Shown: one piece after another, positions 29,255-58,731 of the stretch | How the letters are laid out: each line of letters opens with the position of its first letter | How positions within the stretch are numbered: position 1 is the stretch's first letter | Origin: Cladocopium goreaui | Lineage: Eukaryota; Sar; Dinophyceae; Suessiales; Symbiodiniaceae | Length of the DNA: 64,000 nucleotides | Assembly (NCBI GenBank): GCA_947184155.2 | Contig: CAMXCT020001512.1 | Span: 62,001 to 126,000, forward strand | Direction: 5' to 3' | Translations under genes and position numbers: made by a program | Notes under the pieces: model-generated | Database searches by the model: none | Told to the model about the DNA's origin: nothing | The model's input: only the letters and a program-made list of their open reading frames with translations

Positions 29255-29611
29255 ATCAAAGGGGCTATTAAAAATGACTCTGATTTTTTTTTGACCCTGA
29301 AAACTTGGGAAAATTATAATCTTACGTCGGCTGCAAATATTATCCTGGAGTTATTAATCTAAGGACTGTTTTTGAATATTTTCTAAACAACATCATCAAA
29401 CCATGCCTGCATTATAACTGAACATAATATTATGTTGTAGCCAGATAGAATGCCAGATAGAATGCCAGATAGAATGCCAGGAGATATGTCAGATAGAATG
29501 CCAGAAGATTTGCAAGTAACAAAATGGATGAATGTCATGGTGGGGATCACACGAAGTAAAGTAATTTATGTTTTGGAGTTGGTCTGAAGGCCACCTAGTA
29601 TACTGACACCC
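29255..29611 (+). repeat. Left terminal inverted repeat of the giant element
   Basis: Outer ~175 bp match the right end with only two or three differences (for example gaccctgaaa against gactctgaaa). It is then interrupted by four tandem copies of ccagatagaatg (about 29441-29502) that the right copy lacks, and closes with the shared block ggccacctagtatactgaca near 29590-29611. Confidence 0.88.
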
Positions 29612-29876
29612 GTTACCCACCCCCCTCGTGAAGGTCAGGTCATAGAGAGGCAAGGCAAGTCCTGGCGGCACAAAAATTGGTAAAGAAAAAGAAATCTTAA
29701 AATCATGCAACGTCCACTGAGTACTGTGTGCTAGTGCAATCTGTAACAAGTAGGCAAGCAGACGTGAACAGCATTGGCACTGGCTTCTTTTTTGCTTCTT
29801 GGCCCACAGATCTGCAGCCGGTTGGCAGATATCAGATTTCACACGATATCGCACACATTTCGGTCAACTTCAATCA

Positions 29877-30808
29877 TCAAGATTGGTGGCCAAAAATCAG
29901 TTCTTCCATGGTTTCCATCATCAGAGGGTTCTCATCAACGCTGTCAGGGCCCTCAAGATCCAAAACGTAGAAGCCAAGCTGATTGAAAATGATGTCCCCC
30001 GTGCCACCTTACAAACATTTCCGGGCGAACGTGGCCACAAAAACTTTCCCATCAACAAGTAGTGCCGACAAGGGGCTCAGCGCAAACAAAGGACCATTGT
30101 CAAACCACGGGCTGATGCGATGCATTTTGCCACTGATGGGCGCAGTGGAGAGGTACTCAACGTCCTGTCCAAAGTCGCCCAAAGTCCAAAGTTCCATGTC
30201 ATTGATTCAAGCCATTCACTTTCAGTGACTTTAGCCCCCCCGGCCTTGGCATTCAATTTGTTGAGCATGTCCAACGCATCAATGTCATTGTCGCAGATGC
30301 ACTTCACAGTGTCGACTTTCTTCTGGACATGCTTTTGGGTTTCTGCCCAGCAATGCCTGCATGTGATACAACCGGGCACAGTTGAACTTCACACTTGTAA
30401 AATACTTAAGCTGAGCCGCTGTAGGGTGGCGTAATGCTGGATGTTGGCCAAGGGAATCATCTTGCCACTGGTGGAACTCAGCTGCAGGAACTTTAGAAAA
30501 GCACACGTGCCCAAAGAACGGGTGACATCTTCCAAAATTCTTGACTATGGGTGTAGCCAAGAGGCTCTCCAACATCTATCAAAGCATCTCGCTTGGAAAA
30601 GGCGACCACCAGCGCTTCCAGCCTCAACAAGGAATCCCAAATCAGAAATGTCAAGTAAAGGAGTGACAGTCACAGGCACAAAACCTCAGACTAAAAACCA
30701 GACTTAAGCCCAGCGCGTTTCCATTTTGCGCAAGCCGTCCATCTGGTCCAGCTGCATCAGCAAGAGCTGCTGCATGAACTTTTCTGCTTCTTCAAAAGGG
30801 TCGGCCAT
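29877..30808 (-). CDS. Unidentified multi-exon gene next to the left TIR
   Basis: Not recognised. A good start exon at 30808 reads MADPFEEAEKFMQQLLLMQL followed by a charged helix. Downstream protein-like segments on the same strand are WDSLLRLEALVVAFSKRDAL (about 30640-30540), CICDNDIDALDMLNKLNAKA (about 30305-30240), WTLGDFGQDVEYLSTAPISG and LLVDGKVFVATFARK (30190-30012, followed by a GTAAGG donor-like site), and a last exon with GFYVLDLEGPDSVDENP ending in TGA at 29877-29879. The chain requires about four introns, which I placed by eye. It is the gene closest to the left end of the element. Exon structure is uncertain; that these are real coding pieces is fairly likely. Confidence 0.5.
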
Positions 30809-31103
30809 GGTTTCAGCACGTCACGATTTGTCACGAACTCACTGGCACAGCTGGAGCAGCAAAGCGAGAGCAAATCAGTGACAGCATGCCGCGCATGAAC
30901 TCAGGTCATGTTGAATGCATGTGACAGAATGTGAAAAACACTGGCCCGTGAATCTGACTTATCGATTTGCACAATTGCGAAACACCGCTAAACCACCTCA
31001 TGAAAGCTAAGTCACCTCATGAAAGCTAAGTCACCTCATGAGAGCCTTAGCGTGTCAGCGATAAACGAAAAAGCGATGCTTTTCCCAACCCTTTAGCCGC
31101 AAA

Positions 31104-34100
31104 TCATCCAATGGGCGCCATCAACCGGTGCATTCTGTACAAGTTCCCCCTTTTTGTGGATGAGAGGTTGAGGCCAGTGACATCTATCTTGTGCACATCC
31201 ATCAGGTGATCGTAGACACTGAAAGGGATCAGCAAACTGGCCGCGTCACTGTCTTCCTCTTGCTCTGGCTGAAAATCCCAAGCCAAAATCTTCGAAGCGG
31301 GCTGCATAACCGAAGGAAGAACTTGAGTTTCACACAATGAAATCTCGCCAGAGGGGACCCAACCGCCGAAGATGTCCAAAATCTTCTTCTTACGACCGGC
31401 CTTGAAATTTGCTTCTGGTGTTCGCAATGGGTGGTACCATGCAAACCTTAGCTGCGCTTCACGTTCAGGATATGTTTAAGGTGAAACACCAAAGGGTAAC
31501 AACATGAAAAAATTGTAGATCACGGGAGCCAAGAGGCAGTCCATGGTCATCGCCATTGTGCTGAATGAGCTCCACAAGCACCCCAAGAACGATGGGCAAA
31601 ATCTTGTCATCCTTTCCCGCCACCACAACAAAATCTCCAGGACTGACATAGGCCTTTTGAGCGGGTACCCGGGACTCCGGCGCGCCGGTGACAGTGACAA
31701 GACTGTCTTGAGGTAGGTGCCCAATATCTGCACCCATTGAAATTTGATAATAGACATCCTCTGGAACATCAATGGGTTGGGGCTCACGGATCACAAGCTG
31801 GGTTGGCCCCAAGTGGGCGCTCCTCATGTCAGAAATCATGGTGTCCTTAGCCCATCAAATTCAAACTCAAGTTTTCATCAAATTCAAGATTCACATTCAA
31901 AACAGCTTGATGATCCTGCCAAAAAGAATTTCAGGACAAGTTTCCAAAGATGGCCCAGGATCCATGCCTTCCAAATAGGCTCGAAGCTCAGAAAGCTGTT
32001 GGCGTGGGCGTTGGCCCGATGCAGCCAAAGCGCTTTCCTTGAGTCATGTTTGGCAGCCACATTCCATAAAACCATCAAGTGCAGTGAGGCCACCCATAAA
32101 ATTATCTGACAACTTCCGAGCTTCAAGCTTGTCCAAGAAGTTCAAATGTTTCGCTGCAGCCGCCTCCCCAAATTTGTGTTCCACCAGCGGGGGCTTTGCC
32201 AATGCAAACATAGCGATGCGGTCGTGGTCAACCAACAAGCGGGGTGTGGACCAACTTTCATCTGATACATACTGCTTCCACTTCACCCACATGCCCATGT
32301 TGTCGACATAGAGGCTGAGGGCGTGAATGTTTCGGTACCGATGAAACTCGATGCCGTAGATTTGCCTGAGAACCGTAAAATCATAGCAGGATCCGTGGTG
32401 ACTCCAGTTCATACTGAATGCTTTTAAGGACTGCTTGGAAACGTCCTTCATCTCGCTGAGGGTGTAGTAGGAGCGGCCTCGCAAGCTGCAAATGAGCCGT
32501 GAAAAAAACCGGTCGAGCCCACCGTGGGTGTGTCCCACTAGGGGATACTGCCACTGGATTTCCCGAAGAGCCGTGCCCCTCAATGAAGCAAGCAGCCAGA
32601 TTCCCCAACTGACGTTTGTTGAGTTCTTTGTTTCCTTTGGCGTGTTGTCCGCCCCAATGAACAATGTCGATGGTAGCTTTCCTTCTTTGCAAGCAGTTCG
32701 ATGTAGTTGGCGTGTCAAGATGGTTGATTGCATGTTGGCCCCATGTGGGTGGTCTTCGAAAGTGGTAGTCAGGCAGAACTCATCCTCCCCTCGGGAAAAA
32801 GAAGACAGGGTCAAAGTGTCAACTCTTCTGCCTCTTGACACATGACAATGGTTCAAATGTTCAATTGAAAAAACTTATCCAAGATACGCTTTGGGCCCGC
32901 ATAATGCACACCCACCACGCCAACAACAAAGCGCTCCCCCTGTTTGAACAACTGGGTGGCCAGCCTTGGCGGTGTTTTTGCTGAAACTCAAATTCAAACT
33001 ATAACGCTCTTTTGCTAAAACTCAAATTCAAATCTACATAAAGCAAACAAACAATGCAATTGCTCTGGGGAACATGTCGTGGACACTGGGCAGAATGGTC
33101 TTGTTCTGGTCACATTTGTCAATGGACAAATACCTGCACGGCCCAAATCATCACTTTGACAAAACATTTCGAAATCAAATTCACCAGATGCAGCACGGTT
33201 TAAACATGAACCATGCGTATCCTGAGCCGGTCACCAATCCTCACCGCTTCTTCTGCACATTTCTTGATACCGCGCGATGGACAGTCTCTGCGCTGCCTGG
33301 AATGCGTAATGCTTTCCTGCGCAGTGTCATTGACAATCACTGAATCTTTGGTATCTGCAACCCACTTGTCACAATCACACTGAATGTTGTTGAGAACACT
33401 GCTGTTGGCTCTTGACATGTTCAATTACTTAGAGGACCTGTCCTAGGCGCTTCCGAATGGCCATCACAATCTCAGTGTCGCTTCTCGGGGTCTGGTCCAA
33501 CAAGTTCTTGAGGAAGGTGCAAGCAGAGCACGCTGTGAACATTGATTCCTTCCACGCATCGCACACTATAAACTTTTTTCAGAATGTCACATCGTGTGAG
33601 ATAAGACTGTGAATCCTAATTAAAGGCAAGAATCGGATTTGGCGATGCGAACCCATGGCAGTTCATTGGTCCATGCCTTGCGGAATGTCGATAGATCTGC
33701 AGGCTTGCCCTCCAAGTGCCCCAAATCTTGGCCAGACCTGATGTGCTGTCCCAGGCTGGAAATTGATATCAAATCAGGGCCTCACGTTTCAAAACTCATT
33801 GAAACTGGATTCAATCATAAAAGGCCGAGGTTCCTCTCAAACTCGTACTGCGAGTGGTAAAAGAATTTTCTGCCAGCAGGAAGAAAAATTTGAAGACTCA
33901 TGGGTGATCGCTCACCGTGGGTTTCGGCATAGGTTTCCAGCCAGCTTCTGCAGTCCAAGTATCGAAGGGCTTTTGGGGTGTTCCTGATAGAAAGCCAGGT
34001 CATGCTATCCCTTCGCCAGATGTTCATCACACCCTGGTTGATCTTGTTCCGCACGTTCTGTAAAGTGCCAGCAGAAACCCTTGTCAGTTTCTGAAATGCT

Positions 34101-34301
34101 CGGCTGCAAACCCTGATCCCAGCAAACTTGAACTCTCCATTGCTCTCCTTCATCATGTCCAGCAACACCTGCAACCGCTTGTCGCGGGGCAGGCTGCACC
34201 AAAGCATGCGCCAATTCCTCGACATTGATGACACATGATGAAACCAGTGCAGGCATGACATCTAATTCATCCAATTCAATGTCAAAACGGTTGCAAGCCA
34301 A
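31104..34301 (-). CDS. DUF7869-family protein, many exons; candidate transposase
   Basis: Exons read on the minus strand, in order: 34192-33830 with FAGIRVCSRAFQKLTRVSAG and SLQIFLPAGRKFFYHSQYEF; 33710-33610 with DLSTFRKAWTNELPWVRIAK; 33550-33430 with SDTEIVMAIRKRLGQ; 33345-33230 with AGKHYAFQAAQRLSIARYQE; 33140-33055 with SIDKCDQNKTILPSVHDMFP; 32970-32880 with GERFVVGVVGVHYAGPKRIL; 32835-31897 with GADNTPKETKN (Asp near 32649) and VGHTHGGLDRFFSRL (Asp near 32514); then 31840-31480 and 31427-31104 with NFKAGRKKKILDIFGGW, ending TGA. This matches my recollection of the large dinoflagellate family carrying a DUF7869 domain. The spaced aspartates (IDKCDQ, ADNT, HTHxxxD) look like an RNase H-fold DDE/D core; transposase function is inference. 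An in-frame TGA at 32044-32046 interrupts the main exon. The true start is not identified. Confidence 0.72.
32044..32046 (-). pseudogene. In-frame TGA within the DUF7869 main exon
   Basis: The main exon reads ...GFMECGCQT, then TGA, then continues in the same frame with LKESALAASGQRPRQQ and SELRAYLEGMDPGPSLE up to a stop near 31898. The continuation is clearly protein-like, so the TGA is probably a nonsense change (CGA to TGA would suffice) or a readthrough site, not the natural end. An intron hiding it is less likely because frame is kept on both sides. Confidence 0.5.
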
Positions 34302-34712
34302 GCTGCTTTACAATTGCAGGCTGGTGCTGGAAGACATCCAAACATGCATGGGCTTCACGCCCAGTAGAGCATACTCCCGCAAGGTCCTTTTCCTGAGCAC
34401 ACGGAGAAAAATTATCCATCCACCTTGATCTGAATTTGACTGTTCAACTTGAGTATAAAGAAACTTTGAGTTTGAGTTTTGACTGTTCAACTTGAGTATA
34501 AAGAAACTTTGAGTTTGAATTTGAAGCCAAGTTTCAATGCCACTGGTGCTCAAAAATCTTTCAATGCGCAAAATCGCTTTGGATGAAAGCATCCTAGACA
34601 TTGAGTCATCATTTCGCACATGAACCTTTTGAAGAGACAGTGTCGCAATGGCATTCAGCGCGCGATCTGCTCTGACATATCGTTTTTGGGCTGGTGTGTC
34701 CTGCCGTATAAC

Positions 34713-35872
34713 GATACCCGATCGAATTAGGGGGGAGACGTCGCACCTGGCTTCTTGTAAGATAATTCCAGGGGACTTCCATATAAAAAGAATTGTTTTT
34801 TGGGAATTTTGGCCCTTACAAAAAGCATAGGTTTTTAGCACCCACATTCGACCTCTATCATTTTATAAGGCGACGACTTTCTTCATGATATGAAAGGCAT
34901 CCTACTCGATGACCTTTTTATATATATTTTTTAATAAGAAGTTGTGATTTTAGATAGCGTTTTCGGGCATCATTTTGTAAGGAAACAACTTCTGGTTCCC
35001 TGTTTCTGGTTTTCCCGGACTCGTTGATTTTCAAGCAGCCTTTTGTAAGGATTCCATTTTTTGCAACCTTTTATTAAGTTGTTTTATATTTTTGTATTTT
35101 TGCTTCTTTGGCCTCATTGCCTACCAGAACTCCTCTCATGATGTCTCGCGTTTGTGTTATCACATGAGTTGTTTTTTTTTAAAGTAAAAATTGAACACGA
35201 AAGAACATGTACAAAATGAACATAAGATAGCCGTGAACGTCGTCACACTTACAACTTGCAAAAGATCCTTGGCCATCCTTGGCCAACACAACACCAAGAA
35301 GAAAGTTGGTGCCTCCACCAAATCCAAATTTAACTCAAAATTGGTGCCATGGCTGCCCTAAAACTTGAACTGTGCCATACTTTGTATCAATGCCTAAAAA
35401 TCATATATTCTTCAAAAAGGTTCTTCTACTGGTAATTTTCCCGGTGGTTTGGCTACGCGAAAGGGGTTAAGAAGGGCGACTTTTTGCGCCCAAAAAGGGT
35501 CCCAAAAACAAGGAAAAAAGTCGCCAGTAAAAATCCCAAACCAAAAGGAAAATTACTATTATCTTCTACTCTTGACGACATCTCCTTACAGAATGTCAAT
35601 GCACTGAGTTCTTTTTTGTTTTTTGATGTTCAATAACAACATCTTGAGCTCACGAAAAGCCTCAAAACGATAAACTCGATGGTCTTATAAAATGACTTGG
35701 CACCTGAAAACTCTTACAAAATGAACACTTGAACATCTACAACTTTGCCTTGTGGGTGCCCTGTTACAAAATGCCCTGGTTAGGGGGATCATTGTAACTA
35801 CAAAATGCCTATATATAAACCATTTATAGTGGGGTCGACCCCTTCCATTCTGTAAGGGGAATTCGAACGGGG
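34713..35872 (+). mobile_element. 1.17-kb TIR element, copy 1 (non-autonomous DNA transposon)
   Basis: Nearly identical over its whole length to 48461-49636 in the same orientation. Ends are imperfect inverted repeats: left ATACCCGATCGAATTAGGGG, right (reversed) ATCCCCGTTCGAATTCCCC-like. The candidate 5-bp duplication GTATA lies at 34706-34710 and 35875-35879. Internally it carries many TTGTAAGG / TTACAAAATG motifs in both directions. No credible frame. It separates the DUF7869 gene from the OTU gene. Confidence 0.8.
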
Positions 35873-36167
35873 GTGTATACCGTGTCAAACTTATTCCAAA
35901 ATCACTGTTCACAGCTACAGTTCAATTCAAAATGTGGTTGGGAAACTGGCTCCTGCTCAGCATCATCTTCGCGAGATAATTGCAATATTGCAAATCTCCT
36001 TGACCTGGCCAAGACACCAATAGGCACGTTGTCATCTCTGGCTCCCGCCGAGTTCCTCAAGATCACAGACTCACACTCACTCGCTCATTCAATGAGTGAT
36101 TCAAATTCAATGTTCATTTTCAACTGACAATTCAGTTTTAAACTAACATCCAAACTTGGTTTCAAAT

Positions 36168-38051
36168 TCAACCCTGGGCAAATCCAAGAAGCTGAAGACA
36201 CTCAATGAGATGTTGAGTTGGCAGTTCAAAAGGACACCAGTTCAGGAGGGATTCGCACAATTGCAGTTCCTGCTCTCGCCCACCAAGCACCAACTCTTTT
36301 GGCTCCACGGTGTCATAGTCCTCGTCCAAGTCCAGTGTTTGATGTCCAGGTGTCACACTGAGGGCCACTTGCTCCATGTGACAAGACTCCAACGGGACTA
36401 AAGCCCAAAAGTGGTTGTGCTTGTGCATGGCTACGGGGACCAAACATTTGCTGTCATGGTCACCGGTCATCAAGGAAAGACCGAGGAGCTTGGCAGGCTC
36501 TGACCCATTGTCGATGAGCAGCACATCGGTGCCCACACTGCAGACCAAAGCCTGCAAGAATGCCACATCGCCCCATGCATCTGTCAACCTCAAACGGCCA
36601 ATCCACCGATCAAAGTTCTGATGGGACACTAGCTCTGCAACTTCTTGGAAGCTGGCACCGCCCCAGAATGTCAGTGTTCTGTTTTGTAGGGCCCAATCGC
36701 ACGCCAGCTTTCTGGCTTCTTGGCAGCGTTTGTTTTCATTCATCCGTTTCCAGGTCGGCCGGATGTTTTGCTGAATGGCGCTGTCGATGAAAGATTGCAC
36801 ACAGCAATTTCCAGTTGTTTTTCCATCTTTGACCACATAGTCGTATTCAGTACGGGCCTTCGTTACAAGCTCCCCCGGGCAAAATATGCCACCTCTCCCA
36901 GCACCTTGGGGATGGTCTGCAATCTCTGATGCAAACGTCTGCAAGTGATCTGTGTCAAAAAAAGGACGCCACATGGCACCCAAAGTTTGCGCAAAGCGAA
37001 ATCTAAATCGTGCGCTTCGATCTGCTGCTTTAACATTGGAACTTCTCTGGGCTTCGATCTGCTTTAACTTTGACTGGCCATGTCATGGTCATGTCATATC
37101 TGCTTGGCTCCACCTGCCCCCCCCAGCTGACGAGCCACAGATTGAGCATGTTGAATGATTTGAATTTGAAGGGGTTCTTGACGGACATCTAAGAAATTAA
37201 CATTTTGAACATAAGTGAGTTTGACCGAGTTTGACCTGACACCTCAATTCTTGCTTTAAATCTTACACTCATACAGAGTTTGACAAACGAATATGAATGA
37301 CATCTCGCTATTTGAAAGCCAAATAAAGCGATGACAACTTGACAGTGCGAACCCTCAGACACACCCAGTGCCGAATCGGTCCTCCGGACAGCAAGATGCA
37401 ATTGACCTCAGGCATTGTGTCCAAACGAGATCTCAAAACGCGAAAGAAAAAGTCTAAGGAAGATAAAAAAAAAAGAAAGTCAGAAGCAGAAAACAAGTCA
37501 CAGGCAAGTGAGATGACATAGCGTGTGTCAGCGATCTGCTTTTGCCCCAAATCAGGTCACTTTCTAAACATCGGCACCAAGACCTTTTGCCGATCTGTAC
37601 AGGGCTTTGATGCCTGACTCTGGTGTTTCATCACAACCTTGTGCACCACAACATAGCCGGGTCCATTCTCCTGGGGAATGAAAACTGGCACAGTTTGGTG
37701 ACACAATCGCTGCTGACAAGTTATCACTGACACTGATGTACCAACTTGTGAACGTATCAAGTTGTCAACCCATACTAAGACAACCGGATACCTTTTTTTT
37801 GGACAAGACACGCAATCAATCTTGGTCTTCTTGGACGCGAGTTTCATCAGAGCGGTCATGGTGATGTTGGCATTGCCCTCATTTTCAAGGATTTTCTTCA
37901 CCTTGGAGAATTGCTGTTAGGCACTAGAGGTGCTGGATGTCGATGGGAAATGCTCAGGGTCCACACATACATAAAACATAATATCATAAAACCAAGTCAC
38001 CTCACTTTCGATCAGCTTTCTCTCAGGTTCCGTGAGGAGATCCAACGCCAT
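36168..38051 (-). CDS. OTU-like cysteine protease gene, several exons
   Basis: Start exon at 38051 reads MALDLLTEPERKLIESE and ends at a GTGACTTGG donor-like site. The next exon begins after CTCCAAG near 37900 (KILENEGNANITMTALMKLA, then a CVSCP pair). The main exon 36983-36168 has TTGNCCVQSFIDSAI (Cys60 of that exon in the place of the OTU catalytic Cys), WGDVAFLQALVCSVGTDVLL and KHNHFWALVP (His191 in the place of the catalytic His). This order, G-N-C ... W-G-x-x-x-L-Q-A-L ... H-x-x-L, is characteristic of OTU deubiquitinase-like proteases. The loop residue before the Cys differs from the usual DGNC. A role in processing element proteins or in removing host ubiquitin is inference. Whether it is one gene with its neighbours is unresolved. 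Confidence 0.55.
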
Positions 38052-38544
38052 TGCCAAATGCCAGCTGCCAACGATATAGGCTGATGCTCAACTTAATTAT
38101 CAATGGCAGCGAGTGAGACTGAGTCAATGTGAATGTGACTTGAATTGGTTCAATGTACAATCAGTATCCCAATGTTTAGACAAATTCAAAGTGATCCCAT
38201 TGTGAACTGGCTCAATTCCAGATTCAAACTCAAAGTCAGCAAGTCAACTGGACATGTCAAATTCCAATATCACGCATGACTCTGAAAAGTGTAGACATCA
38301 AAATCAAATCAAATTCACAGTCAGATTCAAAATCAAATCAACTGGTTCACAAGAAGTGTCAGAATCAGCTATTAATCTTTTGCGCCCGGCTGCCTGATGG
38401 ATCACGCATCACACAAAGGGACAAAATCCCAAGAGCCAAAACCAAAGCGCGATAATGCGCTTTTTCCCAAAGCCGCATCAATGATTCATTGACACGTTTC
38501 CCACAAAGCTTTTCAAGCTAAATCTCAAAAGATCAAAAGTGGCT

Positions 38545-41500
38545 TCACATGGCCACATTTCCGAAAGATGCCAGCAAGTTGCGCCCTGGGCCTCCATTGG
38601 CAGCACCGCCGTTGGAGCCGGAGCCATTGCTGTGAGTGGGGGTACCGCCATTGCTCACTGGCGGAGTAGTTGCAGCGCCAGGGCTCGCATTGGGCTGGGG
38701 CGTCGGTGGGCTGGACTTGGGAACTGGCGCAGGAGTTTGCGGCCTGGGCGTGATGGCTCGTCCACGCTTTGCTTCATACTGCACCAATTGCTGGGGCTTT
38801 GCCAAAGCGGTTCCAGGCACCACCCGCTTCTCCTTGAGCCATGTTGCCAGGTTGGCCATCACAAATTTCTGGTGACTCTTTGAGGCACACACTGCCACCA
38901 CCCGAGCTCCAGCAAGAAGGCCGCCAAGAATGGAAAGCCCAGACCCAACGCCAATCGCCACCAAGACGTTGGCACCAAAAATGTGCAGCAGCTCTTGGGA
39001 CAAAACTTGGTGCGCTTCATGAGGAAATGGTACGCATTCATCGTCTTTGATGGATGCAAGCGCCTCCCCTTCCTGCCCAATTTCCTGCAGACAGATGAGA
39101 GGGACGCAATTTTAATCTCAACTGGTTGCCGAAAAAATCAATCACATTCAAGCACCCAAAACATACGCCAACTGTGTCAATCGTTGCGGTGGCCCCCCCA
39201 AAGATGAAATGATAGCCCACAATCAGCCAACACTGTGACAATAAGAAATATTTTAAAATACACATTCAATAGCATGGCGGTCCTCAACAAGTCTGTCGGT
39301 TGCGGTGTCCCCAGCAAACATCATTTCATAGTCTGTCAATTTGCATACCTTAAGGCTGCCGATGGCTACCAAAGGGACTGGCCATCTGTTGAAGAAGGTG
39401 TCCGTGGCCTTCAGAAACTTCATTGTGCTGGCTGCTGTTGAAAACCCTTTCGGGCTTGCCAAGACCAATCGGTCCTCCACATGCGCTCCTTGGATGGAAA
39501 GCCACTGTCATTGGCAACCAAGGCAAGGCATGCGGAGTCATGACGGCTGATGACAACACCTTGAAAACATTGATTGGTTTGATTGATTGATTAATTGACT
39601 GACTGACTGGTTGATTGATTGATTGGTTGATTGATTGATTGATTGGATTGATTGATTGATTGATTGGCCCACCGATTGATGGATTGATTGGATGGATTGA
39701 TTGATGACAACATCACGACCAACTAATTCAGCCAAAGGTTCCAAAAGCCCTCTTTCCGCGTCTGATGCGTGCTAAGAGGTCTGTCTGTTCAGGGTCGAGC
39801 GTGATGACAGCTGTCGATGTCTTTCGGGGTAGCTTTGCTCGCACAACATCCAAAGCTGACTTGCTCTTTAGGCTGTCGACTTTCACCATGACAGCCAAGC
39901 ACGACTTGTCACGCATCTCAGGGCTGCTGGTGGATTGGACCATGGCAAACATGTCCAAGACCTCTGTCATCCTCTGTGCGGAGGCACCCACGCCAACACC
40001 TGTAAAGATGTTGACTCGTCTTTTCTTCACCTCGTCATAGTCGAGCAACCCGTCGTTTTGAGTCTCATAGAGAACGACCTTGGGTGATCCAGTTTCCTTC
40101 AAAAGTGGCAGTCTTTCCAGCTTCTGCTCAGTGTCGCTGGTCCAGACCAGCCATTCAACTCTTGCATCAATGTACCTGGAGCGACCGCGAGACACGAAAT
40201 CAGGCTTAAAAGATTGAAACTCAGATCTATTAAAAACAGGCAATGAAGAGCAGATGAAAACAAAAAAAAAGGAATCAAACTCAGATTAATTTCAAGTTAA
40301 GTTGCTCCTGGATGGTTCGGGTCTCGTGACTTGTCGCCATCATGTTGTATTTGGACAACTCCTCAAGGTAATCAGGTTCATTCACGATCTCATTCGTTGT
40401 CGTGACCTCCAGGAATTCGTGCCGCACAGTCGGTGTGTTGGCAGCTGCTGCAAGCGTAGGTGGGAAGTCTGTCCTCAGTAAAGACATGGTGTGACTGCAG
40501 CTTGCACTGGGTTAAGTTAAGCTCAGCAAAACGTAAGTTCAAATTTTGGTATTGAATGTGATGCTACTATATGACTTTGAAATGTGAATCTGACCTGTAC
40601 CGAGTTTGTAATTCGATCAAAATTAGTACAAGTTTCACATACTTCTCGCGGCATGACTCGACCTGCTTCTGCAATGAGTCGTCCTTTGTCAAATTCAAGG
40701 ACTTGCCCGGCACGGACTCTTTCCTGATGACACCAAAACATCCAAAACAGGACCAACAAAACCATGGTCAAAGTCAATTCCGAATCAAAACTGTATCAAA
40801 ATCAGTGCAAGCCACAAGCAAATGCAAGAACATGTCACAACATCTTGTAAGATCAAACTCAGCAACTGAACTTTTAGAATCAGACTCAGGCAAGTATCGA
40901 CACCTTGCAAAGCGACAACTCGTAGTGGCCCTTGGCCAGCTTCGTACAGAACTTCATCAAAGGGATCTTGGATGTGTAGGCCGAGACTTCCATTTTGCAG
41001 TTGTCGTCATTGTCATCTGGTTCACCTACAGCTCCTTCAACTTCTTGCTCACTTCCAATGAAAGCCTGATACCAATCAGGGTCCATGTAGGCCATGATGT
41101 CGGCCTCGAACTGTTTGAAAAGCCCAGCCAAGTGCTTGTACACGTCGCGCCGGATCAGCAAAGATTTCAAGCGAATGGGGATGTCAAAGTTCCCCTTGCA
41201 GTGTCTCAGAGGAACTATGGAGCCCTTTCGTCGAAACCCACAGCGCTGCTCATACGTCAGGACCTTCACCTGCGCATCAAGATGTGATCATCAGCAAAAA
41301 ATGCCCAATTCATTTTTTTAAACCTAGCTTGGCAGGTTCGACGACAAAATTTATCATCATTTAGGTTCAACATGGCCATCATGGACATGCACTCACAGAC
41401 TTGATTACATGTTATCAATGCAAAGATCTTCAGCCAAGCCACGACGTAGACCGCATCGGCCTCATCCAAGTTCAGGCCTGTGAGGCTGCGCAAGGCAGTT

Positions 41501-42727
41501 ATGCCATCAAGGGCACATTCCCGGCCAAGCTCATACTCGACTTGGACAATTGCTTGCAGCAAATCAGGCTGCCCCTTCAACTTCCGGGCAACAGACACAT
41601 AGCGTTTGATTGTGTCCGATGACCACTCAGATGTGAGCTTTGCAGCAACATCCTCTGGTTTGTCCCCAAGAGTTTCCACCAACTCCAGCAAGACAAGGCA
41701 CTTTGCCCTGGCCGACAGGCCGATGACATTCCTCTGCCTTTCCTCTTCCTCGTAGGCACCTCAATGAGAAAATCATTGGCTAAACAAAGTCAATGCCAAC
41801 TCTCAGCAACAAAAAAGACAATCTGACTTCAGCTTCTCCATGTAAGTGCCAACAAGTTGCAGAACTTCTTCACAAGGTAGTCTGCCCCGACCCCTTGCGC
41901 AGACAGGCAAAGCACCACGTCCGTCAGCGAGTCAATGAGCCAGTGCAAGATGTGCTCATCATCTTTCAACCAGAAGCAAATCAAGCACGCAGCTGCCACC
42001 CTTAGTCGCAAGCAGTCAAAACAATCAGTGGCACACTTCAATTTTTGAAGACGAATCTTAAAGCCATAGTAGCCTAAAGAGCCCCCAAGACCCCAAGACA
42101 ACCATAAGCCGGAGTTTGCTAAGGCTAGGGCTCTGCATCAGAAGAAGATCGGAGCAAGCCTTTGTACTCATCCTCCACCCAAACAGCCGGATCCGCGTTG
42201 ATCTGGATGGTGCCAACAATACCTCCAGACGCATGTCATGCTTCTCCCCAAGACACCCAGGAAAAAATGCAATGCTGCAATGATGCATTCAATCGGCAAT
42301 AGTAACAGGTTGGACTGCATGGTTGTGCCGGTGCTGAGGGTCAGACGGTTGAGAAAGCCCAACGATCCACCCACGGTCATGCTGCCAGGTTTGCCCTTGA
42401 CATCAGCCGCTGCTCTGGTTGGGCATGCCATACCTTTAGCATTTTTCCTGAGTTTGTCCATTGAATGGTGGCTCAGACTGAATGGTGAAATTTGATGAGA
42501 TGCAAATACGATTTACGGACCCCATGCTAAAATAAAACAAAGCCATGAAACCCATTCAGCTGCTGCTGCGTGAAATCGAAGGCTTCGTTCATCACATGCT
42601 CGAGCTGACCAGCACGTACTGAATCCCGAAAAGTCTTCTGAAGGTCGACACTCACAGGTGTGTCCTTGGCAGCACGCCTGGCCAAACCAAAGAGTCGGCG
42701 GGCTTCTTGGTCAGCGGCATCTGCCAT
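38545..42727 (-). CDS. Multi-exon gene ending in an SAM-binding-like domain
   Basis: A start exon at 42727 reads MADAADQEARRLFGLARRAA. Further exons on the same strand include RLRVAAACLICFWLKDDEHI (about 42000-41930), ARAKCLVLLELVETLGDKPE through DGITALRSLTGLNLDEADA (41730-41410), FKQFEADIMAYMDPDWYQAF (about 41120-41050), a block from 40200 to 39740 with NIFTGVGVGASAQRMTEVLD, and the last exon 39003-38545. That exon has VAIGVGSGLSILGGLLAGAR followed by VVAVCASKSHQKFVMANLAT, which resembles the glycine-rich SAM-binding motif and following strand of N-6/N-4 DNA methylases, then a Pro/Ser/Gly-rich tail to TGA 38545. No DPPY-type catalytic motif was found. Function therefore is only suggested. 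Exon junctions are approximate. Confidence 0.5.
39555..39712. repeat. (TTGA/TTGG)n microsatellite
   Basis: Imperfect tetranucleotide tract ttgattgattgattggttga inside an intron of the minus-strand gene. Frames through it are artefacts (Ser-Ile-Asn-Gln strings). Confidence 0.88.
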
Positions 42728-43682: not shown

Positions 43683-46600
43683 TCACTCCAAAAGCAAGCC
43701 ACATCTGGCTAGAACTCCGGTGCCAAGAGCTTGACCAACGCATGCGCTGTGCATGGCATTGCCCATCATTTTTTGGGCGGCCGGCCCGGTCTGCTGGCCA
43801 AAGTTCACGGATGGCGGGAGCCCCATCCTGACATCGGAATCCAAAACAATTTTTACTATGTCATAAATTTTATCATATGTGTTTTATCATTTTGTTTTCA
43901 AAAGGCAAAGCATCAAAACAAGATGTGGAAAACCATAAACAGATTTCGTGTTCGTTAAGATTAAGATGAAGCCACAATATGACATACGTTCCAAACCAAG
44001 GGGATAGTTTTCACAACACCACGCCAGAACTTGAAACACATTTCCAATTCAGAGTGACATTTTTTTCGACATGCAGGATCTTCATCACCAAAAAGACTAA
44101 ATGGCAATGACCGCTTTGGACTTTTTTGAGTCAAGAGTCAACGTTGCCACCTCCGGAATGGTCAAATCGCGACCCAAAGACATGACATACAGGCAGCTTC
44201 GGGTGGCCAGGGTCGGCACAGCTCCGTCCTCCCGCAGTTGGCAGCGCCTGAGCGCACTAGATCAGATCACAAGCAAGTACAAGTGAGCATCACATCAATC
44301 GACTTTAGCTTGGCCAATGGCCAATGGCTGTAACCCAAACTTTAATTAACAAGAGACAAGTTCAATTAACTTTAGGTAAGTCGCAATTTGAGCTCTTGCA
44401 TCTAATTTCAGAATGTCCCCCAAAAAACGGAAACATAACCAACCTCCCCTGCACAAAAGCTGACTGACACATAGTTACATAAGCTGCCGCAAAAAAAACA
44501 AAATCAAAACAAATCCTCAGTCAGCTACTCGGAGACGGCTAGTTCCAGTCGAGTTGCATGATGGTCTGCGATTTGTCCATGATGCATCTGCTGCTCTGCA
44601 ACGGGGCACAGATGTAGGAGAGTATGTTGATCATGTTCCTCTCCCGGGCCGAATTGGTCTGCTTGATTCCGGCAGATTCATACAACCTGATTGAAAAACG
44701 ATGGGCCCATGTAGGGCTATCTTGGGGATCTGGGCGGACTGTGGAACATGTGTCTGGGATATGATGGCGGCCAATGTCAAAGTGTCGGTCATAGCAACTT
44801 GTGACTGGCTTGATCCTACAGTAGCATGCCACCAAGCCGCTCAACAAGTGTGATTTTGCCAGTCTCTTCTGCCACGTTCACGTTCTTCATGAAACCTTAG
44901 AACCGAAATTGGGGCGATGAGTCGGATTCATGACCCCATCTTTTGCTGATGCATTTAAGCCACTGTTTGTCTTCAAGTACTGTGAATGCAAAGTCCTCCA
45001 CGAGCATGTCGGTTTTCCCTTGCATCCTCGGCTTCATGCAATTCTGACATGAAACATTCATGAACACAGCCAGCGTGATTCAAGTTAGAAACTGTCTACG
45101 TTAGTTAGGTCAATCCAAGACTCCGCAACTGCATGGATGAGCATCGCAAAGTACGTAGGGGTTGAGTTCACAGCTGCAACGCGGGAGGCGTAGCATTTCC
45201 TAAGGAGATTGGGAACTTTGGGATGCCTTCACAACATCGAACATGACAACGATAGGTCCCCAAACATTCTTTGTGGGGACCTATTGTCTTCATGGTTGGT
45301 AAACTAGAAAAAGCTGCTTTTGTAACATAGTGATATATTAAAATTGTGCATATGTGCTTGATAGTTCGATATTAAAAAAATGAAACGATGCGTTGTGAAA
45401 ATTTAACTGACAAAAGATTGCAACTTATGTACTTCATGTGCAACCCGGGTACTTCATGTGTGGGCAGGGCATGAAGGCGGCCCCAGGGCACATCGGGTCG
45501 CTTGATGCCCAAGAAATTGTAGAAGTCTGAAGTAAGGGGCACAAGACATTGCTCTTTGGTCGACTGGCAAAGTTCATGAAAGTGTGCGGGTGTACCTTCA
45601 GCACGAAGTATGCCCACAGCCTCAGAATACTGGGACACTTATACCAGGTTACAAATGCAAGACTGATGGCTGGACAATAGTGTTTGCCTAGAAGCATACC
45701 ATCTGGGTCGCAGCATTGGATATCCATAGTTCAAAGGGCTTTGATTGCGAAAGATGGAAATATCATACCATTCAGACAACTCTTTCTTGATATAGTCAAT
45801 GGCCTTCTCCAAGTCGTTCCTATCATCAGAAGAGCACTCGCCATCGGCAGTTGAGGATCTGTTCGTCATACCCTCCACCTTAGCTTCAGATAGCAACGGG
45901 CTGCTTACCTGCTTTTGCAAACAGCTGGTTGCAGCCAAGAAACACATTCCAAAGTGAATACTAAAGGCTGCACCCGCTTCACCGTCTCGATCCCGACAAA
46001 AAATGGCGCACTGTTCTTGTCCCCCCAGCCCTTTCCAAGGCCTCTCCTCAGCCAATGTTGATTTTAGTGGGAGTGTGATGTGGTCTCTGTTATCAACACA
46101 AGCTGGACCTGGCATACAATTCGGGAATGGTATGGAAAGGCTTAAATGCTGCCTGAGTTGCATGCTCCATGGGGTGCACGGAAACCCCAAGCTATACACG
46201 CCAATGTGCTTTGGGATCTCCTCCCAATCGCCTGTGTGCATGTTCTCAACCAAGACCTTTCCGGTATCGTCGTCCACACGGCGGCTTTTCATTTCATTCG
46301 CCAAAGTTCCTTGGCACTTGTGAACCCCAATGCAAAATATAGCAGTCTAAAGAAGTTTCCAAAGAAGTGTGGCTCTGATATATATATTTTTAAATCTACA
46401 GCCTATGGGAATTCAAGAAGAAAGGCTCCGTAAAGGGATCCGTAAAAAGATCCGTAAAAAGATTGATTGGGAATTTTTGGGAAGAAAGGATCGGTGACAA
46501 GCTTCTTGGATTGTGATTGACAGCAATGAAGTGCAAGACATCGGCGTTGCTATCACATGCCCCGACCAGATGAGGCTTCAACTTGATTTTGCCACCAGTG

Positions 46601-48016
46601 CAATTCTCAATCTCTTGGAACCTCAACAGCACAAGAAAATTTCGTGTTGAAAGTATGACTATATAGCTTGAGATACTTAAGTATGTAATACTTACCCCCG
46701 CAGTTTCTCTGAAAGCCAATTTCATGTTAGACTAAGCAGTTCGCGCCTGGGGCCTCCATAAAACTAGCTCACTGGCCACAACAAACCGGCAATATCCGGC
46801 AATACAACCCTCACCTCAACAGAACTTGGGGTTCTCAACTAACCCCACGTTTGTTTCAAACACAAAACCCGCCACTGAATCACTGCAAACTGACAGGGGA
46901 TGGGCAAACACCAGTCAGTCATTGAATCACTTGTTTGGTGTGGTCTTCCACTGCGCTCTGGTAAGTAATTAGATTAATGATAAATCATTCATATCTAATA
47001 TCAACCCAACTGAAGTCTTATTAACAGAATCAAACATCTGATGGTGTCAACATGAAGCATCAACGTTTCAGAACCTCGCCAAGTGGCAATGTTTTCAAGC
47101 CGAACAGTTCAGTGCACATGCCCGCGCAGTCTGACCACATGTTTATGGTCGCCTGCAGCGTCCCAGAGCCACCTCACGACGCATGGGGGAATGATCTGAC
47201 TCTACATTATTGATATGGTTCACGTGTCATCTGTTCTGTCCACACTAATGCCCATGATGCCCATGTTCACACTCACGCAAAACCAGTTGACATTGATATA
47301 CTCACGGTGAAACTACATTTGACTGATGATTACATGGGTATGCTTTTGATACTAATTTTGATCCGATGGATCCTGCGTTGAAATGCATCCAGGCGTCCAG
47401 AAATCCGGCGAGCAAGGTTTTTTGCCCACTCCGCTTGTGGCGCAATGGCTTGCATCTGCCTCTGCACATCGTCGCTGCAAATCACCTTGTCCTGCCAGCA
47501 GGTGTCATGCAGTCAGCAAGCTGCGTTTGCTGCTACGTGCTGGGGGGGGGTTCCTTTTTGGCATTTTTTCTTTATACACCAAGGGGAAAATTGCTATTAT
47601 ACATAATGCCATTCTTGAGTTTGATGTGGGGTTTGTTGAGAATATGAACTTGAAGCTCGATAACGTTACTTGAATTTGACATGAGTTTTGAACAGCACAT
47701 CTTGCTTGACAAGTGCAACTTGATATCACTGCTGAATTTGAAAATGCTGACCATAAAGAGCATACTAACTGAACCTGAGCATTGATGGAGTTTGAATTTG
47801 AGTTGGGGCCTTGAACTTGAACGGATATAAATCTTGAAAATCTACGAACCGAAGTTGATTCGCTCCTTGCATTTGAACACTGGGTCTGACCTTTTTTCTC
47901 CCCAGGACAGCTGCCATCTCGTTGAGAGCTAAAGCTGAAGTGCCGAGGGCGCAAGACTTCAAGGAAAACCCAAAATTACTGGCCGCCAAAGTGACCTTAA
48001 ATATCCGGCCAAACAA
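43683..48016 (-). CDS. C5 cytosine DNA methyltransferase-like gene, many exons
   Basis: Conserved C5-methyltransferase motifs appear in order on the minus strand in separate protein-like exons: motif I-like MWSDCAGMCTELFGL (47140-47095); KPHLVGACDSNADVLHFIAV (about 46590-46520, motif II/III); GVYSLGFPCTPWS, catalytic Cys at 46176-46178 (motif IV); VQPLVFTLECVSWL, Glu at 45947-45949 (motif VI, ECV for ENV), followed by a GTAAGC donor; LNYGYPMLRPRWY (about 45735-45690, motif VIII region); VPTLATRSCLYVMSLGRDLT then IPEVATL (about 44230-44120, motif IX); QKMMGNAMHSACVGQALG (about 43790-43720, motif X), ending TGA 43683-43685. Upstream exons include WAKNLARRISGRLDAFQRRI (about 47460-47390) and SALALNEMAAVLGRKK (about 47930-47880); the start is unsure. 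The enzyme would methylate cytosine in DNA in the nucleus. Substitution in motif VI is mild. A decayed copy cannot be excluded because not every splice junction was verified. Confidence 0.75.
45245..45288. repeat. Small hairpin in the methyltransferase gene region
   Basis: gacaacgataggtcccca faces tggggacctattgtc around a ~10-bp loop. Likely intronic; purpose unknown. Confidence 0.6.
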
Positions 48017-48460: not shown

Positions 48461-49641
48461 GATACCCGATCGAATTAGGGGGGAAACATCGCACCCGGCT
48501 TCTTGTAAGATAATTCCAGGGGACTTCCAAAAACCCTATAAAAATAATTGGTTTTTGGGAATTTTGGACCTTACAAAAAGAGTAGGTTTTTAGCACGCAC
48601 ATTCGACTTCAAACACCTATTCCATTTTATAAGGCGACGACTTTCTTCATGATACGAAAGTTGCATCCTACTCGATGACCTTTTTATATATGTTTTTTAA
48701 ATAAGAAGTTGTGATTTTAGATAGCGTTTTCGGGCATCATTTTGTAAGGAAACAACTTCTGGTTCCCTGTTTCTGGTTTTCCCGGACTCGTTGATTTTCA
48801 AGAAGCCTTTTTGTAAGGATTCCATTTTTTGCAACCTTTTATTAAGTTGTTTTATATTTTTGTATTTTTGCTTCTTTGGCCTCATTGCCTACCAGAACTC
48901 CTCTCATGATGTCTCGCGTTTGTGTTATCACATGAGTTTTTTTTAAAAAAAAAAGTAAAAATTGAACACAAAAGAACATGTACAAAATGAACATAAGATA
49001 GCCGTGAACGTCGTCACACTTACAACTTGCAAAAGATCCTTGGCCATCCTTGGCCAACACAACACCAAGAAGAAAGTTGGTGCCTCCACCAAATCCAAAT
49101 TTAACTCAAAATTGCTGCCATGGCTGCCCTAAAACTTGAACTGTGCCATACTTTGTATCAATGCCTAAAAATCATATATTCTTCAAAAAGGTTCTTCTAC
49201 TGGTAATTTTCCCGGTGGTTTGGCTACGCGAAAGGGGTTAAGAAGGGCGACTTTTTGCGCCCAAAAAGGGTCCCAAAAACAAGGAAAAAAGTTGCCAGTA
49301 AAAATCCCAAACCAAAAGGAAAATTACTATCTTCTACTCTTGACGACATCTCCTTACAAAATGTCAATACACTTCTTTTTTGTTTTTTGATGTTCAATAA
49401 CAACATCTTGAGCTCACGAAAAGCCTCAAAAAGATAAACTCGATGGTCTTATAAAATGACTTGGCACCTCAAAACTCTTACAAAATGAACACTTGAACAT
49501 CTACAACTTTGCCTTGTGGGCGCCCTGTTACAAAATGCCCTGGTTAGGGGGATCATTGTAACTACAAAATGCCTATATATAAACCATTTATAGTGGGGTC
49601 GACCCCTTCCATTCTGTAAGGGGAATTCGAACGGGGATACA
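48461..49641 (+). mobile_element. 1.17-kb TIR element, copy 2
   Basis: Same element and orientation as 34713-35872, differing by scattered substitutions and small indels. Left end ATACCCGATCGAATTAGGGG, right end ATTCGAACGGGGAT. The pentamer TGAAG is found at 48457-48461 and 49642-49646, a candidate 5-bp target duplication. Inserted between the methyltransferase gene and the MKRPA gene. Confidence 0.8.
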
Positions 49642-52786: not shown

Positions 52787-52799
52787 GGTCAGCTGACAT

Positions 52800-53795: not shown

Positions 53796-53895
53796 NNNNN
53801 NNNNNNNNNNNNNNNNNNNNNNNNNNNNNNNNNNNNNNNNNNNNNNNNNNNNNNNNNNNNNNNNNNNNNNNNNNNNNNNNNNNNNNNNNNNNNNN
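53796..53895. other. Assembly gap of exactly 100 N
   Basis: A run of 100 undetermined bases flanked on the right by a TAC/TAG triplet tract. The round number indicates a placeholder of unknown true length. Confidence 0.98.
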
Positions 53896-54743: not shown

Positions 54744-54776
<33 letters not shown>

Positions 54777-55191
54777 TGGTAGTGGTAGTGGTAGTGGTAG
54801 TAGTAGTGGTATTTGCAGTAGCTGTAATGTTTTCTGACCCCTTGAAGGCACTGCGGGCCCCCTGGAACATACTAGTACGCTATCACTTGCGGCCAAGGGG
54901 CAAAAGGTAGCATGGAAGGGGAAAAAGCAACAAGTCAGAAAGGCATCTACAAGAGGCAAGAGGTCAAACAGACAGACATGGAAATTTGAAGACTGAAACT
55001 AGGACAATATTGGTAAAAGCTAGACCCGGGCTGAGATCCTGGAGATGTGGATGTTTCAGACCTGTTTCAGACTGTTTCAGACCCTTTTCTGGCCATGCAC
55101 AACACTTGACACAATTGGCAGTAAAGAACCAAACAATTCTAAGAGTAGTAGTCATAGTCGTAGTCGTAGTCGTAGTCGTAGTCGTAGTCGT

Positions 55192-55264
<73 letters not shown>

Positions 55265-55266
55265 TC

Positions 55267-55306
<40 letters not shown>

Positions 55307-55316
55307 CTAGTAGTAC

Positions 55317-55352
<36 letters not shown>

Positions 55353-55495
55353 TAGTAGTAGTAGTAGTAAGAAGTAGTAGTAGTAGTAGTAGTAGCAGTA
55401 GCACGAGCAGTCGCAGCAGCACTAGCAGTAGCAGTAGCGAAAGGAGTGGTAGTAGGGGTAGTAGCAGTCGTAGTGGCAGGAGCAGTAATGTTTTT
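54247..55495. repeat. Tandem higher-order repeat with expandable (TAG)n cores
   Basis: A unit made of a TAG-triplet tract plus ~330 bp of unique-looking sequence is repeated. The spacer from cttgcggccaaggggcaaaa through gacagacatggaaatttgaa and ctgagatcctggagatgtgg to aaccaaacaattctaagagt occurs at about 54418-54680 and about 54890-55147, nearly identical. The triplet cores at 54247, 54677 and 55142 differ greatly in length and in TAG/TCG/TGG variants. Long Val, Ser or Thr frames through them are not genes. Confidence 0.88.
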
Positions 55496-57190
55496 TGACC
55501 CCTTGAGGGCATTGCGGGCCCGCTTATTCAACAGTTCAAGCGGGTACTGCCATAGCTTCGTTGGACTGGATAGGCAAATTGGCTCCAGTAGCCCTGCTTC
55601 AGATGAAAATGGAACCATTTGTGATAACGGTGTGCACACACACACACGGATGGAGTCCTCGAAAAGTTCGATTGCTGCTAGGATGCCCCCTAATAAGCTC
55701 GACGAGGCGTGTTAATTTATTCTCGGCTCATGTAGTATTGGTTTTCAATAGGCGGAATGGAAAAACAATTTTAAAAAAAATGGTCCCGAGCGCCGGCATT
55801 CTTTTTATTAGGGGGACCTTTATTAATAGGGGGTCGAGATTAAATTGTGGCACTGGATGGACATCTTTCGGTCGAGCGCAAAAGCCAACTGGGGTGGCTC
55901 ATCTAGTACGGCACCGTTTGGGAGTCGAATCCATCCCTCAGAGGCATGGAAGAGTCCAAGCAAACAGAAATCAAGGGTCCAAGCGAACAGAAATCAAATG
56001 CTGGCACCCGGTCCAATCACGATCCAATCACCTTTGCTACTAGTCCCGGTCCAATCACGATCTGTCAATGTCAAGGCACTTTCTTCTCCACACCCTTGCC
56101 CGGAAACACGACCAGGCAGACACGCCTCCCCCACGTACTTCCAATGGAGGTATCCATCGAAGTTGGTGATGCGCCCGCTGTTGATGTCAGACACCCTTAG
56201 GTTGCAAGTACCCATTCCACACAATTCCACAACCAACACAAATGCCACAATCCCCGCATCCATCTTACGAATAGCCTCAATGCAACTGACTGAAACTAAC
56301 TGACTTATCAGGCTCACTAGCCCACAGTCTAAAACAACAAGCCGAAGAACGCAGTTTCAGCCAGTTGGGGGTCCAGCTTCCACCTGCAAAGCGGCTATGC
56401 TTGAAGCTGGGCTGTTCAATCCACATTGCAAAGAGTGAGTAAACAACAAACATGCGTGAACATTGAACATGGCGCACTGCATATGTGATTAATTGTTCAG
56501 AGCATGACAACACCTTGCTGCAGCGGAGGCGCAGCAAGTAAAAGGCCTGTTGCCCACGGCGGCTCAGCAAGCAGGTGAAAGCGTGGTACTGGCTTGGGAT
56601 CAGTGTCAAAGCCACTGACTGATCCATACCATCACGGCCAGCGCAATGTCAGTGTGGTTTATGTTGTTAGTGTGGTTTATGTTGTTAGTGTGGTTAGTGT
56701 GGTTTATGTCAGTGTGGTTTATGTCTCTGATCATGATATAGTGATAACAACATGGTGGGCGTGTCAGTGTGGTGTTTGAATGCGTTTGTGTCTTTGGTTT
56801 GGCCTGCCGGCTGTTGTTGACATGTTTTGACATGTTTTGACATGTTTTGACATGTTTTGACATGTTTTGACACGTTTGGTCTCTCATTATTTCTCTTTGG
56901 TTTTGACATGTTTTGACATCGCCTGTTGTTGATCAAGACCTGTCTCTTGTTTTTGCCTTGATTCCCAAAGCTCTCAAAACGCACGTGGGTGTGAATCTGA
57001 GCGACTGCAACTTTGATTCTGAATCTGGGCACTGCAATATAAAATTTAGTCATGGGTGACTACCCACGTGCTTGGCTGAACACATGCAAGAGCCACCTGC
57101 GCAAATGTAGTGTCTTTGCCTGCATTGGCCTCAGTCCCAAAGCAATGACCGGATGGCGGAAACTGGTTGAAAGCTCGAAAGCTCTTCTGT
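55496..57190. other. Mostly non-coding, with weak minus-strand frames
   Basis: A minus-strand frame from 56263 to 55994 starts with a signal-peptide-like stretch, MDAGIVAFVLVVELCG, and runs ~90 residues; a second at about 56465-56285 contains GGSWTPNWLKLRSSACCF. Neither is recognised. The region 56640-56725 is a tandem of gtgtggtttatgtt, and 56815-56875 is an 11-bp tandem tgacatgtttt. Coding status is open. Confidence 0.35.
56815..56925. repeat. 11-bp tandem repeat TGACATGTTTT
   Basis: Six near-perfect copies in 56818-56880 and two more near 56902-56918. Confidence 0.88.
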
Positions 57191-57193
57191 AGT

Positions 57194-57993: not shown

Positions 57994-58264
57994 GTCCTGT
58001 TAGGACGCCTGAATGCGAGAAAGTAGACTTGAAAGTGAATCTGACTGAGTTTGCAGACTAAGAATAGAACCCACCGCGAACCTGGCTGGACGCGGCAATT
58101 GCAACAGCTGAGCGGATGTGAAAGTGAAAGTGAAAGTTGCCATAACAAGATCAACGGCGCCAGCGCCAATATCAAAACATGCCAGACGCACGGCCCATGT
58201 GTTGATCTTGACGTTGGTTGCAAAATACATGGCCCACCCCCACCATCCCACCAACAGAGCCAGG

Positions 58265-58435
58265 ACCCACTTTAAAGTCTACCCTTTTCAACCTTTTTCG
58301 GGCCCCGAAAGTCTACCCTTTTAGAGTCTAATTTCCAACCAATAGAAATGGTCATTATCCGGGGCCCAGAAAGGCTAGACTTTAAAAGGCTAGACTTTAA
58401 CAGGCAGGGTAGACTTTAATTGGCAGGGTAGTTAG
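58265..58435. repeat. Subterminal repeats near the right TIR
   Basis: aaagtctaccctttt occurs twice (about 58274 and 58309) and its inverse-type relatives gggtagactttaa, aaggctagactttaa (twice) and ggcagggtag follow. Clusters of short repeats beside TIRs are typical transposase-binding regions; role here is inference. Confidence 0.6.
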
Positions 58436-58479
58436 ACAAACGTCATCACCATGATCGCCATTAAAGCGGGTCGAGGAGT

Positions 58480-58731
58480 GGGTGTCAGTATACTAGGTGG
58501 CCTTCAGACCAACTCCAAAACATAAAAAACACTAACATGAGATAGTAGCTACTACAACATATTATTTTCAGTTATAATGGCATGGTTTGATGATGTTGTT
58601 TAGAAAATATTCAAAAACGGTCCTTAGATTAATAACTCCAGGATAATATTTGCAGCCGACGTAAGATTATAATTTTCCCAAGTTTTCAGAGTCAAAAAAA
58701 AATCAGAGTCATTTTTAATAGCCCCTTTGAT
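58480..58731 (-). repeat. Right terminal inverted repeat of the giant element
   Basis: Reverse complement of the left end: the outer ~175 bp align almost without gaps, then a diverged stretch, then the identical block ending gggtgtcagtatactaggtg. About 100 bp shorter than the left copy because it lacks the ccagatagaatg array. Confidence 0.88.

What the first reader, a model, noticed from the sequence alone, without database searches (positions are those of the whole stretch)
29255..58731. A ~29.5 kb element bounded by long terminal inverted repeats and carrying a multi-gene cargo
Seen: both ends read ATCAAAGGGGCTATTAAAAA inward and stay nearly identical for ~175 bp; TAT lies just outside each end; three MITE families present on both sides are absent inside; protein-like exons inside run on one strand. 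Known: giant TIR elements such as Mavericks are 15-25 kb and carry integrase, protease and polymerase; I see no B-type polymerase or capsid gene here. Inference: this is a distinct giant transposon of a dinoflagellate, with DUF7869, OTU and DNA-methyltransferase genes.
Basis: partly seen in the sequence, partly recalled or inferred. Interest (0 to 1): 0.93.

Follow-up and report, generated by a model that had tools for sequence, protein, structure and literature searches.

The report
Giant gene-carrying transposon of coral algae
This 29.5 kb stretch of what is probably a coral symbiont's genome belongs to a group of very large cut-and-paste transposons that carry a likely new type of transposase together with their own DNA-methylating enzyme, and some relatives are so alike that they probably jumped recently.

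Summary
Two inverted ends of about 180 bp (95-97% identical) face inward 29,477 bp apart, flanked by TAT. The end tip aligns without gaps over 46 bp with those of three other families in this 1.17 Gb genome, probably Cladocopium goreaui. One family gives 13 inward-facing pairs 13.5-27.9 kb apart, another a 25.6 kb pair. With the window, 10 of 15 pairs have exact 3-bp target duplications; 5 of 200,000 permutations reach that. DUF7869 is modelled as an RNase H fold resembling retroviral integrases and Mos1 transposase (modest Z), with a conserved D-D-D set at the expected places. Best reading: giant cut-and-paste transposons, with OTU-DUF7869 as their undescribed DDD-type transposase and an on-board DNA methyltransferase. 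Transposition itself was not shown. The window copy has a scaffold gap and two nested insertions, so it may be dead.

The parts
29252..29254 (.). left copy of the 3-bp target-site duplication TAT
29255..29441 (+). left terminal inverted repeat; first 46 bp carry the tip shared by four element families
29565..29611 (+). second inverted segment, 47 bp, 100% identical to 58526-58480
31119..36893 (-). one intron-containing gene: OTU-like part (36893-36183), then the DUF7869 part (exon ORF 32874-32047; C-terminal part to 31119); candidate transposase
   Evidence: tblastn of homologous single proteins of about 1,100-1,190 aa; Pfam PF25273 E=6.7e-22; OTU only sub-threshold in relatives
34713..35872 (.). 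nested repeat (1.16 kb) between the OTU-like and DUF7869 exons of that gene
38541..42712 (-). gene X, unknown function; in this genome found only on contigs that bear element ends
   Evidence: tblastn of P0023/P0024; genome distribution
44115..47146 (-). C5 cytosine DNA methyltransferase gene (GFPCTPWS motif near 46.2 kb, NYGYPMLRPRWY near 45.7 kb; outermost pieces match weakly, E 0.002)
   Evidence: the PF00145 hit is on the related C4846 copy, the window copy itself has no Pfam hit
48461..49636 (.). second copy of the nested repeat, 95% identical to 34713-35872
53796..53895 (.). scaffold gap of 100 N
58480..58526 (-). partner of the 47-bp inverted segment
58548..58731 (-). right terminal inverted repeat
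58732..58734 (.). right copy of the 3-bp target-site duplication TAT

Best explanation
The region is an older, possibly dead copy of a giant cut-and-paste DNA transposon. Shown: paired inverted ends with a conserved 46-bp tip, 3-bp target duplications at most of the sites examined, a conserved three-gene block next to one end, near-identical copies elsewhere with different flanks, shorter copies with related ends, and a modelled RNase H fold with three aligned aspartates in DUF7869. Inferred: the OTU-DUF7869 protein is the transposase. It would bind the 46-bp tips, cut both ends with the D220/D308/D353-like site (numbers of relative P0010) and insert with a 3-bp stagger; the OTU-like part might shield it from ubiquitin-dependent turnover. 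The methyltransferase would methylate element DNA, either for transposition on methylated DNA or to coexist with host silencing. The ~14 kb copies would be deletion derivatives moved in trans.
Confidence: 0.8

Rival explanations
1. A real giant TIR element, but moved in trans by an unrelated transposase; OTU-DUF7869, X and the methyltransferase are passengers.
For: DUF7869 activity untested; 14-kb copies with no listed DUF7869 match still have ends, so movement in trans probably happens; structure match modest; the six-frame Pfam scan is insensitive, it missed the window's own methyltransferase and OTU-like part.
Against: DUF7869 sits at the same end and orientation in C1512, C3822, C1090 and C4846; no other transposase domain by Pfam in six frames of the window element; fold and D-D-D set are those of a DDE enzyme.
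Confidence: 0.12
2. An integrated DNA virus or Polinton-like element that lost, or hides, its capsid and polymerase genes.
For: Size and inverted ends; integrated DNA viruses are reported from protists (PMC10120064 and PMC7805220, seen only as search listings). The six-frame Pfam scan missed the window's own methyltransferase and OTU-like part, so divergent viral genes could be missed too, and 100 N are of unknown true length.
Against: No polymerase, capsid, ATPase or protease family by Pfam in six frames; apart from DUF7869 only sub-threshold Mucin, New_glue and RP-C matches. No relative of DUF7869 confirmed in IMG/VR (which may leave out near records). Window and C4846 share a block of methyltransferase, X and OTU-DUF7869 and nothing viral that I could name.
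Confidence: 0.06
3. A segmental duplication or assembly artefact that mimics a TIR element at this locus.
For: 100-N gap inside; some 14-kb copies sit in scaffolds with swapped flanks.
Against: TSD at this locus, MITE boundary on both sides, and related architecture at other loci.
Confidence: 0.03

Closest known systems
Ginger1 DNA transposons (PMC2836005, passages including parts of the abstract)
   Same: TIRs of tens to hundreds of bp; a transposase with an integrase-like RNase H core joined to an OTU-like protease
   Different: Ginger1 is 2.6-7 kb, starts TGTNR, makes 4-bp CCGG/CCGT duplications and has OTU at the C-terminus; here 13.5-29.5 kb, ends ATSA, 3-bp duplications, OTU-like part N-terminal, no rve hit
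Maverick/Polinton (PMC6431247, passages only)
   Same: Giant, several genes, DDE-type integration enzyme
   Different: No family B polymerase or capsid gene found; different gene set
DNMT-carrying retrotransposons of Symbiodinium (PMC5890265, start of abstract in a listing, and passages)
   Same: Mobile elements of the same algal family that carry a C5 DNA methyltransferase
   Different: The ones named in the passages are LINE and DIRS retrotransposons; this is a TIR element with no reverse transcriptase found
PIF/Harbinger (features recalled)
   Same: 3-bp target duplication, TIRs
   Different: Target here is not TWA (TAT, ATA, ACA, GTA, AAT); no Harbinger domain hit; far larger

Membership tests
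Class II TIR (cut-and-paste) DNA transposon | Terminal inverted repeats in pairs | tested here: met
Class II TIR (cut-and-paste) DNA transposon | Target-site duplication of constant length | tested here: met
   3 bp in 10 of 15 pairs, 5 of 200,000 permutations; 4 of the 5 misses share a flank with another copy, C1440 does not
Class II TIR (cut-and-paste) DNA transposon | Element-encoded DDE/D enzyme of RNase H fold | tested here: inconclusive
Class II TIR (cut-and-paste) DNA transposon | Excision leaving an empty site | not testable with these tools
   No second strain or reads held for this genome (no relatives)
Ginger1 | 4-bp CCGG/CCGT duplication and TGTNR ends | tested here: not met
   3-bp AT-rich duplication, ends ATSA
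Ginger1 | Gypsy-type integrase (rve), C-terminal OTU | tested here: not met
   No rve hit in the element or in P0002, P0012, P0015; OTU-like part is N-terminal
[quoted passage not shown]
   No such Pfam family in six frames, but the same scan missed the methyltransferase, and the gap at 53.8 kb could hide sequence
PIF/Harbinger | TWA duplication (recalled) | tested here: not met
   TAT, ATA, ACA, GTA, AAT seen
CACTA/EnSpm | Ends beginning CACTA/G (recalled) | tested here: not met
   Ends begin ATCA or ATGA
KDZ (Zisupton group) | 8-9 bp duplication (recalled) | tested here: not met
   3-bp duplication in 10 of 15 pairs
OTU cysteine protease | PF02338 above gathering score | tested here: not met
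   Relatives P0002 and P0015 score 15.0 and 13.1 bits against 23.3, P0012 has no hit, the window ORF none; hence OTU-like only
C5 DNA methyltransferase | PF00145 above gathering score with PC catalytic motif | tested here: met
   Met for the C4846 composite, 39.7 bits against 22, with GFPCTPWS in both copies; the window composite alone gave no hit

The most novel reading that the evidence does not exclude
DUF7869 is the catalytic domain of an undescribed superfamily of DDD transposases that drives giant (about 24-30 kb) transposons in dinoflagellates; these carry their own cytosine methyltransferase as a conserved working part, so the element writes its own methylation marks, and they breed 14-kb non-autonomous giants.
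Probability: 0.55. Interest if true: 0.87.

Novelty: new variant of a known kind. Interest (0 to 1): 0.8.

Why it matters
The C. goreaui genome paper says that novel Symbiodiniaceae repeats stay unclassified for lack of dinoflagellate repeats in the database (PMC9412976, passage). This gives one such class a full anatomy: ends, target duplications, a candidate transposase with three testable aspartates, and a conserved three-gene block. It puts a DNA methyltransferase inside a cut-and-paste transposon, so whether elements methylate themselves becomes testable. It also offers a function for Pfam's DUF7869 and a possible natural vector for moving tens of kilobases in coral symbionts.

Tried and rejected
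LTR retrotransposon for 34713-49636 (two 1.16-1.18 kb direct copies): rejected, the copies have different flanks and no LTR-type ends, and no reverse transcriptase was found between them. OTU and DUF7869 as separate genes: rejected. Premature stop in the DUF7869 exon: not claimed, the stop may lie in an intron. Partner of the C225 tip: none found from 566,093 to 686,000, with a 5,000-N gap at 597,213-602,212. No DUF7869 relative confirmed in IMG/VR (109 pattern matches, none confirmed). Structure of gene X: mean pLDDT 47, not used. No clear solved relative or Pfam family for gene X. Genome-wide search with the tip patterns: not completed. Methyltransferase search of the own genome: not completed, so linkage of the methyltransferase rests on window, C4846 and the EukProt protein P0026. 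In print: 'DUF7869' 0 papers; searches listed nothing, judged by title and start of abstract, that describes such elements; only open-licence PMC papers were searched.

Full report
Observation. The two ends read ATCAAAGGGGCTATTAAAAATGACTC inward and match over 187 bp at 95% or 176 bp at 97%, 29,477 bp apart, with TAT outside both. MITE families A, B and E occur 12, 8 and 3 times in the window and never inside. G+C is higher inside than outside, though the left border is not sharp.

Where it is. The genome has 1,165,616,438 bases in 6,202 contigs. The species name is therefore an inference.

Gene content. The OTU-like exon (36.9-36.2 kb) and the DUF7869 exons (34.4-31.1 kb) match consecutive parts of single proteins of about 1,100-1,190 aa (P0002, P0012, P0015). 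Upstream lie gene X (42.7-38.5 kb; my composite is 60% and 62% identical to P0023 and P0024) and a C5 methyltransferase (47.1-44.1 kb). In another gene set (EukProt) the DUF7869 relative s434_g4 and the gene X relative s434_g6 bear names that would place them on one scaffold (my reading of the names), and the model s220_g28 (P0026) matches both the methyltransferase and gene X of the C4846 copy in order, at 65-94%. These proteins are not identical to any stretch I fetched (s434_g4 is 75% like C3822 and 61% like the window), so they probably come from another species; I did not identify it.

Related elements. DUF7869 matches lie on 14 contigs (40 of 118 candidates scored, so a lower bound). Seven of them end in right ends 99-100% identical to that of C4846. 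C4846 and C313 are 99% identical up to a sharp right end, beyond which the sequence differs, and in C4846 a genomic MITE lies 165 bp outside that end. The exons of window and C4846 are collinear from methyltransferase to DUF7869 at 25-62% protein identity per matched piece, mostly near 40%.

Ends genome-wide. The C4846 right end (200 bp) gave 41 matches, of which I count 35 as element ends (6 are internal repeats). They form 13 inward-facing pairs: C4846 24,271 bp, C313 24,056, C365 27,919, and ten of 13,489-14,970 bp (C5910, C5849, C2407, C1868, C1440, C1336, C380, C209, C121, C2644); 9 ends are unpaired (C1779, C5317, C4594, C1142, C5905, C2591, C1499, two in C2135), some near contig ends. 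The C3822 end gave a pair of 25,597 bp and a right end in C1090. The tips of window, C3822, C225 and C4846/C313 align without gaps over 46 bp, ATSA.......T....AAAA.TGA..C......TTT.TTGA..CTGA. For window against C4846 alone 15 of the first 26 bases agree; 11 of 20,000 random 26-mers of the C4846 interior reach that.

Target duplications. 10 of 15 pairs examined carry an exact 3-bp duplication: window TAT, C3822 GTA, C2644 AAT, C4846 ATA, C313 ATA (ambiguous, in an AT run), C365 ACA, C5910 ATA, C1868 GTA, C1336 TAT, C380 TAT. The misses are C209, C121, C5849, C2407 and C1440. Permuting left against right flanks reached 10 in 5 of 200,000 trials. C5849 and C2407 share 40 of 40 flank bases with C1868 or C380, and the left flanks of C209 and C121 show the same 15 bases as C380 and C5849: cross-joined scaffolds or recombination between copies. 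C1440 has no such excuse.

Gene X looks like an element gene. Matches lie on 20 contigs, and all 20 carry a family end or 136 (55 of 91 candidates scored). In 8 of the 10 paired 14-kb elements, and beside the unpaired end in C2591, only a fragment of gene X was listed; C5910 and C1440 had none listed; and none of the ten had a DUF7869 match. They look like non-autonomous derivatives, with the caveat that not all candidates were scored and that I did not read their interiors.

Methyltransferase. The C4846 composite scores 39.7 bits against PF00145 (cut-off 22) and finds 11 relatives, 5 of them tagged PF00145 (only the 7,993 best candidates were scored). The window copy shows the same motifs but no Pfam hit. 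DNMTs inside retrotransposons of this algal family are known (PMC5890265); [quoted passage not shown]

State of the window copy. It has a 100-N gap, two nested repeats (one within the span of the candidate transposase gene, between exons) and TIRs 3-5% apart; whether its genes still work is unknown. It is best seen as an older member of a group of which the C4846 family is a young one.

A control against me. The six-frame Pfam scan of the element found DUF7869 but missed the methyltransferase and the OTU-like part, so its silence on viral or other transposase genes is weak evidence.

Verdict. A real giant TIR transposon and, with its relatives, an apparently undescribed group of 13.5-29.5 kb elements. 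Membership in Ginger1, Harbinger, CACTA or KDZ fails on tested features (the last three against recalled definitions); Maverick membership is unsupported but not strictly excluded. The OTU plus DDE combination resembles that of Ginger1 but is arranged differently.

Noticed in passing
window 1-7605 (-): An uninterrupted 2,535-aa frame with RVT_2 and rve (and a sub-threshold zinc knuckle): a Copia-type retrotransposon polyprotein, about 55% G+C against about 38% to its right.
   Followed up: partly
G000:C5849, C2407, C1868, C380, C209, C121: The 14-kb elements sit in scaffolds whose flanks are swapped between copies (40 of 40 bases shared in three cases), hinting at assembly cross-joins or recombination between elements.
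   Followed up: partly
G000:C225:586093: A lone element tip with TGC outside and Copia-like sequence inside; no partner end in about 100 kb to the right, a 5-kb gap in between.
   Followed up: partly
G000:C1669, C163, C5897, C1314: More distant DUF7869 copies for which no family end or gene X was listed. Possibly further families with other ends.
   Followed up: no
window 34713-35872 and 48461-49636: A 1.16-1.18 kb repeat with weak inverted ends (GATACCCGATCGAATT ... AATTCGAACGGGG), 95% alike, twice inside the element.
   Followed up: partly
window 27138-27717: Tandem repeat with a period near 52 bp just left of the element.
   Followed up: no
window 53896-55525: Long low-complexity repeat arrays directly next to the scaffold gap, perhaps the cause of the gap.
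   Followed up: no
G000:C4846:467098-467676: A 193-aa frame upstream of the methyltransferase in the young copy with no counterpart found among window ORFs; only a chance-level HARP match.
   Followed up: no
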